This document shows positions 21,515 through 27,734 of a stretch of DNA of 64,000 nt, piece after piece; positions within the stretch are counted from its first letter, which is position 1, and the number at the start of each line of letters is the position of its first letter. The notes beneath the pieces were generated by a model. That model made no database searches and was not told the DNA's origin. It was given only the letters and a program-made list of their open reading frames with translations. The translations under genes were made by a program, and so were the position numbers. Source of the stretch: Evansella sp. LMS18 (GTDB lineage: Bacteria > Bacillota > Bacilli > Bacillales > Salisediminibacteriaceae); the NCBI RefSeq assembly GCF_024362785.1, contig NZ_CP093301.1, forward strand, positions 434,001 through 498,000, given 5' to 3'.

Positions 21515-21600
21515 ATATTGTGGTTTGGTATGGAAGGTATTATGATTTGTTATCCTTCTGAAAAATCCCTCCGATGGTTATTTTTAGTAATATCAGTGAG

Positions 21601-22092
21601 TTATTCTGGACAAATCCTCGCTCTTTTACTGAGATTTGTCCTGCAAACCGTTTTTTCTGGACAAATTTGTCCCAACCTCGGTTAATTTGTCCAGATTACC
21701 AACGTTACTGGACAAATTTTGCTTTTTGGTTTCGAATTTGTCCAATAAAATTCCTTTAACAGGATTATTTGTTGATATTAGTAAGTTATTCCGGACAAAT
21801 CCTCGCTCTTTTACTGAGATTTATCCTGCTAACCGTTTTTTCTGGACAAATTTGTCCCCAACCTCGGTTAATTTGTCCAGATTACCTACGTTACTGGACA
21901 AATTTTGCTTTTTGGTTTCGAATTTGTCCAATAAAATTCCTTTAACAGGAATATTTGTTAATATTAGTAAATTATTCCGGACAAATCCTCGCTCTTTTAC
22001 TGAGATTTGTCCCGCAAACCGTTTTTTCTGGACAAATTTGTCCCAACCTCGATTAATTTGTCCAGAAAACCTGCCTTACTGGACATATTTTG
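21601..22092 (+). repeat. 185-bp tandem array built of GGACAAAT / ATTTGTCC words
   Basis: Two full units of about 185 bases (starting 21601 and 21786) and a partial third (21972). Within each unit the word GGACAAAT and its complement ATTTGTCC alternate at about 25-26-base spacing, and once fuse as the 14-base palindrome GGACAAATTTGTCC. Units differ by few substitutions, so the duplication is recent. One plus-strand frame is open through it but reads only repeats. Confidence 0.95.
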
Positions 22093-22138
22093 CTTTTCCA
22101 GTAAACTCCCCTATAGCTCTTTAGTTATCTGAAAAAAG

Positions 22139-23733: not shown

Positions 23734-24171
23734 TTAATCTCCGTTTTCTGCTTCATCTGCATTATACCCTTTAAGCAGTTCAGGTTCCATTTCACCTTCT
23801 CCAAAAATCTCAAACTGTTTTTCCACTTCGTTCTCCCCTTCTGAGATGGTGACAATTGCATACCATTCCCCTTCCATAGCAAGTGGAAGTTCAATCGCAA
23901 ACTTTCCAGGTTCCGTTTCTTTCATCTTACCTTCCATGGGATGGTGCATCCTCTCCATATTCATATAGAGATACACCGTCTCAGGAGAAACTGCTTCCCC
24001 ATCCTTATCCTGCAGAATAACCTCATAGGTAATAAACTCCTTCGTCGGATACGTTTCCCCTGCATTCTTCAGCTGAATATCCGTATTTCCCAGAGCGTTT
24101 GCGCTGCTGCATCCAGTTGCAGCAGCTGTAACCATAATTAAAATTGTCAATAAATAGACGATATTCTTCAT
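23734..24171 (-). CDS. YtkA-like domain lipoprotein
   Basis: A 145-residue exported lipoprotein. The signal peptide ends AAATGC with the lipobox cysteine at about residue 21. A single FixH/YtkA-like beta-sandwich follows, with YLYMNMERMHHPMEGKMKETEPGKF as the recognisable core. The His/Met-rich patch could hold copper, as proposed for relatives (inference). It is divergent from the redoxin-ccdA pair, and the tail is acidic. Confidence 0.82.
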   Translation of the reverse strand: MKNIVYLLTILIMVTAAATGCSSANALGNTDIQLKNAGETYPTKEFITYEVILQDKDGEAVSPETVYLYMNMERMHHPMEGKMKETEPGKFAIELPLAMEGEWYAIVTISEGENEVEKQFEIFGEGEMEPELLKGYNADEAENGD

Positions 24172-24804: not shown

Positions 24805-25497
24805 ATGGACATATTGTTCGCTTTCGCAGCTGGTGTCCTGTCTTTTACCTCGGCTTGCATATTGCCGTTAATTCCTAGTTATATAGCTGTTATAACCGGG
24901 TTGACAGTCACAGAGCTTAAAAGTACAGAGAAACTGGAACGTTTTAAAATTCTCCCAAGGTCAGCAGCGTTCGTAATCGGACTGATTATACCTTTGATAA
25001 TAATAGGAATGGGAGCAACCACCATCGGAGGATTTTTCACACCGGCTTTTTCGGATTTCCTTTCACAGCTTCTTGGTTTTATAGTTATCATTTTCGGTCT
25101 GCATCTCCTTGGGTTGCTGAATATTCGTTTCCTTCAGCGGGAGATACGTTTTAACAAGGTCTTTCAGAGAAAAGGGGGTTTATTCACAACCGGGTTAATG
25201 GGAATGGCCTTTGGCTTCGGGTGGACTCCATGCATCGGACCTATGCTCAGTTCAATTTTAATACTTGCTGCCGATTCTGAGACAGTGTGGCAAGGGGGTG
25301 GTTTGCTTCTTGTTTATGGCGCCGGTCTTGGTCTGCCTTTCATTCTCATTGGATTTGCAAGCGCTTCGAGCCTTAAGCTCCTACGCTTCCTGCAAAAACA
25401 TGTAAAAATACTTTCCACAATCAGCGGAATACTCCTGCTGCTCCTTGGTATTCTTCTCATAACCGGCAATATGGCGTATATCACTCCGGGAATATAG
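24805..25497 (+). CDS. ccdA: CcdA-type thiol-disulfide electron transporter
   Basis: A 230-residue membrane protein with six helices. It carries both redox cysteines in their usual settings: SACILPLIPSYIAVITGL in helix 1 and GWTPCIGPMLSSIL in helix 4. It passes electrons from cytoplasmic thioredoxin to extracytoplasmic thiol proteins. It is translationally linked to the CxCC redoxin gene and ends at a strong terminator. Confidence 0.9.
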   Translation: MDILFAFAAGVLSFTSACILPLIPSYIAVITGLTVTELKSTEKLERFKILPRSAAFVIGLIIPLIIIGMGATTIGGFFTPAFSDFLSQLLGFIVIIFGLHLLGLLNIRFLQREIRFNKVFQRKGGLFTTGLMGMAFGFGWTPCIGPMLSSILILAADSETVWQGGGLLLVYGAGLGLPFILIGFASASSLKLLRFLQKHVKILSTISGILLLLLGILLITGNMAYITPGI

Positions 25498-26583: not shown

Positions 26584-26811
26584 ATCCTTTTCTCCCCTTC
26601 CATATTTTTCTCTCTTTTCCATGATACTTATTTTTTGAAAAGCTTGCATTACTTCTTTTGTTTTATCGGTAAAATTTTTAGTTTTCTTTTCTCAGTTTAC
26701 TAAAAAGTGAGGAATTTTTGACAGATGGCTGTATGGGCTCTGCCCTGTCCTTTGATGTTGTATAATATTAAAGTCAGTTGAAATTTATTAACATGAAAGT
26801 GAGGAGGCAAT

Positions 26812-27270
26812 ATGCAAAAACTTTTCGTATGCCTTGCTGCCTTTAGTATGTTTCTTCTGCTGGCTGCCGGGTGCAGTACGGAAGAAGCAGCTGAAACAGC
26901 GGCTGATGAATATAATTTTCCCGAGTATGTAATGGAGGCAGCTCACCCGGGTGCTGTAGATGCCTATAAATATGCAGTGGAAAACGGGGAATATCTGGAA
27001 TACATCCCATGCTACTGTAATTGCTATGTAGAACCGTTCAACCACCAAAACGTGAAAGACTGCTTTATAAATAATGAGAATTTGGACAGCGAAACACTCG
27101 TATACGATCCTCATGGTGCCGGCTGAGGAATCTGTATAGATATTGCACTGGATGTGCAAGACATGAAAGAGGACGGTAAGCCTTTAACTGAGATCAGGGA
27201 ATATATTGATGAAACTTATTCCATTTATGCGGATCCAACCGATACACCTTACCCGCCTGAAGATATGTAA
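26812..27270 (+). CDS. PCYCGC-motif lipoprotein with in-frame TGA, candidate selenoprotein
   Basis: A 152-residue exported lipoprotein if TGA at 27124-27126 is read through. The lipobox cysteine is C21. The family motif appears as PCYCNC (66-71), followed by VKDCFI. Codon 105 is TGA in HGAG-U-GICIDIALD. From memory, relatives have Cys here (KCGVCLEIA). The frame after TGA stays open for 48 codons and keeps family features (EIREYIDETY, a Pro-rich end). A hairpin fitting bacterial SECIS rules starts 16 bases past the TGA. If TGA is a stop, the product is 104 residues and lacks the second metal/thiol site. GGAGG lies four bases before ATG. Confidence 0.75.
27127..27159 (+). promoter_or_regulatory. 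Candidate bacterial SECIS element
   Basis: Directly after TGA: 16 bases, then the perfect six-base stem TTGCAC/GTGCAA (27143-27148, 27154-27159) closing the loop TGGAT. The loop starts 22 bases past the TGA and has G as its second base. Published bacterial SECIS rules ask for a G in the first two loop bases and a loop 16-37 bases from the TGA. TGT and ACA could add a lower stem across an internal loop. Confidence 0.6.
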
Positions 27271-27443
27271 TAATAACTGCAACATTTAACAATGCCACTT
27301 TTTTGAACAAAAAAAAGAAAAATATATCTTGTATACCACTTTAAAAATCTCCTCCTGTTTGTTATTATAATAACAAGTTTTCGGAACATTCTTTCTTTTC
27401 ATAAGTGACTAAGGGCTTCAGAACAAAAGGAGGAGATTGTTGC

Positions 27444-27734
27444 ATGGTATTAACTGCCGAAGAAGTAGAAGCAAGTTTGTATGACTCAGAAGGCTGGGAC
27501 GCGGAAGACGGAAAATGGATAAAAAAGGAGTACGAATTCAGGAGCTTCAGAAAAGCCATCAGCTTTGTGAATGAAATTGCAAAACTTGCCCAGGACCGGC
27601 AGCATCATCCCAAAATTTCAATCGACCGCAGAAGAGTTCAGATTAAGCTCAGTACCATGGATAAACAAGGATTAACTCAAAAAGACTTTGAATCTGCTTA
27701 CGCTTATGACCGTACATATGAGAAATATATTTAA
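27444..27734 (+). CDS. Pterin-4a-carbinolamine dehydratase
   Basis: A 96-residue single-domain protein of the PCD/DCoH family. WIKKEYEFRSFRKAISFVNEIAKLAQDRQHHPKISI contains the catalytic HHP histidines. It dehydrates 4a-hydroxytetrahydropterin; in bacteria without phenylalanine hydroxylase it may serve molybdopterin or folate chemistry. The start is ATG 27444, about nine bases after AGGAGGAG; an upstream extension in the same frame has no ribosome site. Confidence 0.92.
   Translation: MVLTAEEVEASLYDSEGWDAEDGKWIKKEYEFRSFRKAISFVNEIAKLAQDRQHHPKISIDRRRVQIKLSTMDKQGLTQKDFESAYAYDRTYEKYI

What the first reader, a model, noticed from the sequence alone, without database searches (positions are those of the whole stretch)
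26812..27270. Candidate new selenoprotein: PCYCGC lipoprotein with in-frame TGA at a conserved cysteine
Seen: an open frame of 104 codons, TGA at 27124-27126, then 47 more sense codons and TAA in the same frame. The translated tail continues the family pattern (GICIDIALD, EIREYIDETY). TGA falls where, from memory, PCYCGC relatives have Cys next to a GxC motif. A stem-loop TTGCAC-TGGAT-GTGCAA sits 16 bases past TGA, with loop G at position 2 and loop start 22 bases away, inside published bacterial SECIS limits. Sec would give a U-G-I-C redox or metal site. I am not aware of Sec described in this family.
Basis: partly seen in the sequence, partly recalled or inferred. Interest (0 to 1): 0.92.

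Follow-up and report, generated by a model that had tools for sequence, protein, structure and literature searches.

The report
Bacillus-type selenoprotein in the PCYCGC family
This gene very probably reads a stop codon as the rare amino acid selenocysteine, in a small surface lipoprotein that may handle thiol electrons outside the cell; the protein family was already on the published selenoprotein list, so the case is a well-supported new branch rather than a new kind.

Summary
The frame 26812-27270 has one TGA (27124-27126), and its PF13798 match (100 bits) runs through it. The same genome holds tRNA-Sec, selA, selB and selD within about 6 kb. Of 53 low-scoring family proteins read (window included), 41 carry exactly one TGA, all at this column, and 12 have Cys there. 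Against Evansella clarkii the 42 codons after the TGA differ at seven, all synonymous. A SECIS hairpin sits at one place in 41 of 41 TGA genes and covaries. Of 32 order-level genomes with a TGA form, 31 have selB.

That Sec is new to this family is not supported: a 2026 review lists PF13798 (OS_HP4, CYCXC) as a selenoprotein family with motif UxxC, which is this U-G-I-C. New here are the Bacillales branches with two hairpin sequences, and a functional lead: ResA-like and CcdA neighbours, thioredoxin fusions, and a C-terminal hairpin resembling CcmH. I read it as an extracytoplasmic thiol/selenol oxidoreductase; that part is inference.

The parts
26801..26807 (+). GAGGAGG, likely ribosome-binding site, 4 nt before the ATG
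   Evidence: read directly
26812..27270 (+). PCYCGC-family selenolipoprotein gene, 152 residues with Sec at 105
26872..26874 (+). lipobox-type Cys21 (LLAAGC)
   Evidence: Cys in 52 of 53 subgroup rows and 29 of 29 classical rows
27007..27024 (+). PCYCNC motif (Cys67, Cys69, Cys71)
   Evidence: Cys in 48, 50 and 48 of 53 subgroup rows
27061..27063 (+). Cys84 (DCF)
   Evidence: Cys in 50 of 53 subgroup rows and 29 of 29 classical rows
27124..27126 (+). UGA read as selenocysteine (U105)
27133..27135 (+). Cys108, the partner of the UxxC motif
   Evidence: Cys in 53 of 53 subgroup rows and 29 of 29 classical rows
27143..27159 (+). SECIS-type hairpin TTGCAC-TGGAT-GTGCAA
24284..24802 (+). ResA-like thioredoxin-fold protein (PCECC); candidate electron donor
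   Evidence: Redoxin 37.2 bits; found in 10 of the 16 loci of the window's clade
24805..25497 (+). CcdA/DsbD-type membrane protein; candidate electron carrier
   Evidence: DsbD_TM 59.3 bits; found in the same 10 of 16 loci of the clade and in 4 loci outside it
23734..24171 (-). YtkA-like lipoprotein, recurrent neighbour
   Evidence: YtkA 26.7 bits against 25.9; 8 of 16 loci of the clade

Best explanation
The gene encodes a probable membrane-anchored, outward-facing lipoprotein of the PCYCGC family in which the ribosome reads UGA 27124-27126 as selenocysteine. The hairpin 27143-27159 recruits SelB with Sec-tRNA-Sec made by the SelA and SelD of the same genome (decoding route: established knowledge; components found here). 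The product carries a U-G-I-C pair at the start of a predicted helix plus a C-Y-C-N-C cluster and Cys84. Inferred, not shown: it is a thiol/selenol oxidoreductase on the outer face of the membrane, kept reduced by CcdA through the ResA-like protein encoded nearby, and acts on a thiol- or metal-bearing substrate, much as CcmH does in cytochrome c maturation. I put Sec insertion at about 0.95, a thiol-redox role at about 0.6, and the CcmH-like reading in particular at about 0.35. The confidence given is for the selenoprotein part.
For: Machinery, each over its cut-off: tRNA-Sec 62.2 bits against 47 (ARAGORN SeC), selB 363 against 242, selA 542 against 268, selD 409 against 125 with its own TGA in a GUGCK motif, all within 4864.3-4870.3 kb. 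Position: 41 of 53 subgroup proteins read (window included) carry exactly one TGA at the column where the other 12, and 29 of 29 readable classical proteins (30 fetched), have Cys. Coding after the TGA: 7 synonymous and 0 nonsynonymous codon differences in the first 42 of 47 codons against L095; over all 47 only the last residue differs. Hairpin: the best model-fitting one has its loop 21-22 nt from the TGA in 41 of 41 TGA genes, and in 2 of 12 Cys genes, both with 4-bp stems; 90 of 90 cells paired and two compensated pairs in the window's clade. Co-occurrence: selB in 31 of 32 TGA genomes against 71 of 181 other PF13798 genomes. Redox role: ResA-like and CcdA neighbours in 10 of 16 loci of the clade, and directly upstream in one locus (L080) of the other Sec clade; thioredoxin domains fused to PCYCGC in L091 and L093; profile match to CcmH, 91.5% probability against at most 4.0% in 60 column shuffles and at most 1.6% for 16 other families.
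Against: No protein, 75Se or reporter data. The hairpin alone is not unusually stable. Nine of the 12 Cys forms are in genomes with selB, so Sec is not required where the machinery exists. Two genomes with TGA forms show no selB over the cut-off: G232 (480 contigs, 96% complete) and G005 (170 contigs, 76% complete). The CcmH match covers only the C-terminal helical hairpin (34-36 columns), not the CxxC of CcmH; the Foldseek hit to CcmH is weak (E 1.6); Pfam lists no CcmH row at E up to 10 for 8 members, though HMMER's filters drop most rows above 0.1. CcdA was found near only 1 of the 25 genes of the other Sec clade; an ABC-transporter ATPase is near 13 and a heavy-metal-ATPase-like gene near 7 of them (names from my reading), which would also fit a metal-handling role.
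Confidence: 0.93

Rival explanations
1. The TGA is a sequencing error or a recent nonsense mutation, and the gene is a pseudogene.
For: A single in-frame stop looks like this; what looks like a real pseudogene of the family exists (G386, TAG and TAA inside).
Against: The same TGA in 41 of 53 sequences held; no nonsynonymous change in 42 codons after it against L095; compensated hairpin.
Confidence: 0.01
2. UGA is a genuine stop and the 104-residue form is the functional product, with occasional read-through.
For: The Cys-rich PCYCNC lies upstream of the TGA; not excluded by experiment.
Against: Conserved tail, with Cys in Cys-form relatives; the (U/C)xxC pair is kept in 53 of 53 rows while PCYCGC cysteines are lost in 5 Cys forms.
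Confidence: 0.03
3. It is a selenoprotein, but a metal-binding or metal-handling lipoprotein rather than a thiol oxidoreductase; Sec is a ligand.
For: Cys-rich with a conserved His; in the other Sec clade neighbours look like Znu-type ABC transporters, Zur-type regulators and heavy-metal ATPases (names from my reading of the sequences, not scanned).
Against: The ResA-like/CcdA neighbours and thioredoxin fusions; the transport neighbours differ between families (they look like zinc, heavy-metal and tungstate types).
Confidence: 0.3

Closest known systems
OS_HP4 / CYCXC (seleno)protein family (NCBIfam NF041379; filed under PF13798 in PMC13188914)
   Same: CYCxC motif followed by a UxxC pair; the model's alignment runs across the Sec column (window residues 48-136)
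   Different: Window protein scores 67.4 bits, under the curated 90; six relatives scored 57-76. The founder is listed as coming from the Olavius algarvensis symbiont paper; this is a Bacillales branch with its own hairpin sequences. The founder's sequence was not fetched
Classical PCYCGC lipoproteins of Bacillales (PF13798), e.g. AOT13_14730 of Parageobacillus (PMC13068155, one passage)
   Same: Lipobox, PCYCGC, further conserved Cys, CxxC pair at the same column
   Different: Cys, not Sec, in 29 of 29 readable of 30 fetched
CcmH/CycL/NrfF of cytochrome c maturation
   Same: C-terminal helical hairpin with a G-x-x-x-x-EI-x-x-x-I-x-x-x-Y pattern; CcdA- and ResA/CcmG-like genes nearby
   Different: No CxxC alignment, no Pfam CcmH row, lipoprotein anchor, extra CYCxC cluster, Sec

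Membership tests
Bacterial selenoprotein | In-frame UGA at a column where homologues have Cys | tested here: met
   41 TGA and 12 Cys of 53; 29 of 29 readable classical rows Cys
Bacterial selenoprotein | bSECIS: 3-9 nt loop, 4-16 bp stem, G in first two loop positions, 16-37 nt from UGA (PMC13188914, passages) | tested here: met
   6 bp, 5-nt loop, G at position 2, 22 nt; covariation
Bacterial selenoprotein | selA, selB, selD, tRNA-Sec in the genome | tested here: met
Bacterial selenoprotein | Selenium in the protein | not testable with these tools
   no wet data
PF13798 PCYCGC | Score over gathering cut-off | tested here: met
   100.2 against 25 bits
NF041379 OS_HP4_CYCXC equivalog | Score over curated cut-off | tested here: not met
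   67.4 against 90 bits
CcmH (PF03918; accession recalled) | Pfam match | tested here: not met
   no CcmH row at E up to 10 in 8 members
CcmH (PF03918; accession recalled) | Shared three-helix fold | tested here: inconclusive
   Foldseek E 1.6, TM 0.32/0.55; profile hairpin match 89.7-91.5%

The most novel reading that the evidence does not exclude
Selenocysteine was gained (or kept) in at least two separate branches of PCYCGC lipoproteins in Bacillales, each with its own SECIS sequence in the same place, and the proteins are CcmH-like seleno-thiol reductants outside the membrane fed by CcdA and ResA-like partners: a function for a family listed so far as hypothetical.
Probability: 0.3. Interest if true: 0.6.

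Novelty: new member of a known kind. Interest (0 to 1): 0.4.

Why it matters
Standard stop-codon annotation would cut this protein at its presumed active-site residue (inference), and the curated NCBIfam selenoprotein model falls short of its cut-off for all seven of these sequences that I scanned, Sec and Cys forms alike. The Sec/Cys split, including a Cys form in the same genus (Evansella caseinilytica), gives natural pairs for asking what Sec buys. The CcdA/ResA and thioredoxin links make the function of an unnamed family directly testable.

Tried and rejected
Sequencing error and pseudogene: rejected by conservation and codon pattern. Sec new to the family: rejected by the review table. 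Solved relatives by sequence: none convincing. Foldseek: nothing at E up to 0.001. Hairpin stability by z-score: not significant. Promoter and terminator scan near the gene: within shuffle expectation. A strict rule 'Cys only without selB' fails: 9 of 12 Cys forms have selB.

Papers: NF041379 in none; Evansella with selenoprotein in none; PCYCGC in two, neither on selenium by title and, for one, the passage read. Searches (20 of 228 listed; 2; 10 of 58; 10 of 22) showed no title on Sec in Bacillales PCYCGC; passages of PMC12013277 and PMC5029168 did not name the family. So I found no held paper on it, but the lists were capped, supplements were not searched and most subscription papers are not held.

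Limits: the classical count leaves out L024, which my script did not parse (29 of 30); the frames were recognised by their CYCGC, CFCGC or DCF/DHG motifs, so the PCYCGC cysteine counts in those rows are biased, while the Sec column was not used. One search had mis-parsed 14 of 30 and is replaced. The tree is a quick one with 27 of 58 inner branches open; it holds 8 of the 29 classical rows and only the last 115 residues of L091-L093. The CcmH comparison left out 8 rows (L083-L085, L087, L088, L091-L093) and trimmed both profiles. The covariation count covers the 15 TGA rows of the window's clade, not the other 26. Neighbourhoods are cut by contig ends in several loci. Neighbour names outside the window rest on my reading unless a Pfam call is cited.

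Full report
What is there. Pfam PF13798 matches across the TGA (100.2 bits, cut-off 25). NCBIfam NF041379, 'CYCXC family (seleno)protein', matches at 67.4 bits, below its cut-off of 90.

Machinery. The window lies in a 4.90-Mb single-contig genome. It holds tRNA-Sec (62.2 bits, cut-off 47; ARAGORN SeC, anticodon tca), selB, selA and selD, each over its cut-off and all within about 6 kb. SelD carries one in-frame TGA within its match, in a GUGCK motif, so a second selenoprotein is likely. It is grouped in the window's genus, so the window is probably from an Evansella (inference).

Relatives. Of nine genus genomes six have the family; six of seven matches have one TGA and one has none. Of 35 family genomes ten have it; ten of eleven matches have one TGA, and 29 of 35 pass the selB cut-off. 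Of 397 order genomes, an even sample that includes the window's own, 213 have PF13798 and 179 have selB at E up to 1e-80. Scores fall in two classes. Stop status was seen for all 213 through the listing, a repeat on 58 low or multiple matchers and one on 16 whose rows had been cut (none of 16 has a stop). Thirty-two genomes carry a TGA form: 31 have selB, against 71 of 181 other PF13798 genomes (Fisher 2e-10; genomes are related, so this p-value is too kind). The exception, G232, is 96% complete in 480 contigs. Outside that sample six more genomes of the family carry TGA forms; five pass the selB cut-off and G005, a 76%-complete genome with two TGA copies, does not.

The Sec column. I fetched and read 53 low-class proteins, window included. 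Forty-one have exactly one TGA and 12 none. In one alignment all 53 fall at the same column, as does Cys in 29 of 29 readable classical proteins out of 30 fetched. The second residue of UxxC is Cys in all 82. By contrast PCYCGC cysteines are altered in five Cys forms, which keep the CxxC. E. caseinilytica (G002, L098/L110) has Cys although it has selB. Nine of the 12 Cys forms have selB, so loss of the machinery does not explain most Cys forms.

Selection. Between the window and L095 the first 42 codons after the TGA differ at seven codons, all synonymous; the 38 codons before it differ at seven synonymous and five nonsynonymous. Over all 47 tail residues only the last differs, Met against Leu. 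Eight more distant rows differ from the window at 10 to 18 synonymous and 8 to 14 nonsynonymous codons in that stretch, with third positions changing most. The tail behaves as coding sequence.

SECIS. Forty of the 41 TGA genes fall into two hairpin types at one place: TTGCAC-TGGAT-GTGCAA and variants in the window's clade, and AGCC-CGTGA-GGCT and variants in the other; L074 has a third stem sequence. A model-based search put the best hairpin's loop 21 or 22 nt past the TGA in 41 of 41, and in 2 of 12 Cys genes, both with 4-bp stems (only the best hairpin of each gene was reported). In the window's clade (15 TGA rows) 90 of 90 cells pair, and two of six pairs show compensated changes in six cells. 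None of 500 shuffles reached the covariation score, the paired fraction or the six cells; 24 of 500 reached two doubly changed pairs; the number of further pair types was no higher than in shuffles (500 of 500); sliding the partner broke pairing. Against: synonymous resampling reaches the observed hairpin in 24 of 2000 for the window and in 2 to 76 of 2000 for the seven other TGA genes tested (L055, L060, L074, L094, L095, L099, L103). For the two Cys genes tested it is 68 (L098) and 283 (L090) of 2000. The single fold has z -1.21.

Tree. On 61 rows (41 Sec, 12 Cys, 8 of 29 classical), with the Sec residue masked, the Sec label needs four changes, of which well-supported branches force two. 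The window's clade (15 Sec, one Cys) is supported at 100. The two large Sec clades are not next to each other on this quick tree, but 27 of 58 inner branches are open, so two separate gains are not shown.

Function. AlphaFold2 on eight sequences gives pLDDT 85.6; residue 105 stands just before helix 106-120. Foldseek finds nothing significant; the top row is the CcmH N-terminal domain (E 1.6). Following that lead, PCYCGC profiles against 11 CcmH/NrfF sequences (one from E. coli K-12 and 10 of 158 matching plasmid records) give 91.5% and 89.7% probability over the C-terminal helical hairpin. Controls: reversed profile 0.2%, 60 column shuffles at most 4.0%, 16 other families at most 1.6%. The CxxC of CcmH is not in the aligned part, and Pfam shows no CcmH row. 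In the window a ResA-like gene and a CcdA-type gene lie upstream, with a PAP2 gene on the other strand between them and the selenoprotein gene. The pair recurs in 10 of 16 loci of the clade, window included. In three of them, and in L080 of the other Sec clade, ccdA ends within 170 nt upstream on the same strand; L080 also has a WCKPC thioredoxin-like protein before it. L080 is, however, the only one of 25 genes of that clade with CcdA in the stretch fetched. In the two f6 proteins that I scanned a thioredoxin domain is fused to PCYCGC, with a Germane (spore germination) match between, under its cut-off in one. ResA and CcdA as an extracytoplasmic electron route, and CcmH as a client of such a route, are recalled knowledge. 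Together these favour a thiol/selenol oxidoreductase; the substrate is unknown.

What is known. PMC13188914 (passages) lists this Pfam family as OS_HP4 with UxxC. The only UxxC in this protein is U105-G-I-C108, and none can lie within CYCxC, so the published Sec position and this one agree by motif; the founder sequence was not fetched. I therefore file it as a new member of a known selenoprotein family. It is not an NF041379 equivalog by score, and not shown to be a CcmH.

Noticed in passing
L104 6631-7701 (G000 selD): SelD of the same genome has an in-frame TGA in a GUGCK motif: probably a second selenoprotein, close to selA, selB and tRNA-Sec.
   Followed up: partly
L091, L092, L093: Proteins of 374-399 residues with PCYCGC at the C-terminus; in the two scanned (L091, L093) a thioredoxin domain precedes it with a Germane match between.
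   Followed up: partly
L083-L085, L087, L088: Cys forms that lost PCYCGC cysteines but keep the CxxC.
   Followed up: no
L062, L096/L099, L073/L074: Three genomes (G291, G005, G183) carry two TGA copies each; G183 has one of the common type and one divergent (L074).
   Followed up: no
window 21588-22097: Tandem array, period 186 bases, 2.8 copies, 93% matches, with an open frame that is probably spurious.
   Followed up: no
window 27405-27734: Pterin-4a-carbinolamine dehydratase gene just downstream (PF01329, 92.8 bits), also in five other loci of the clade.
   Followed up: no
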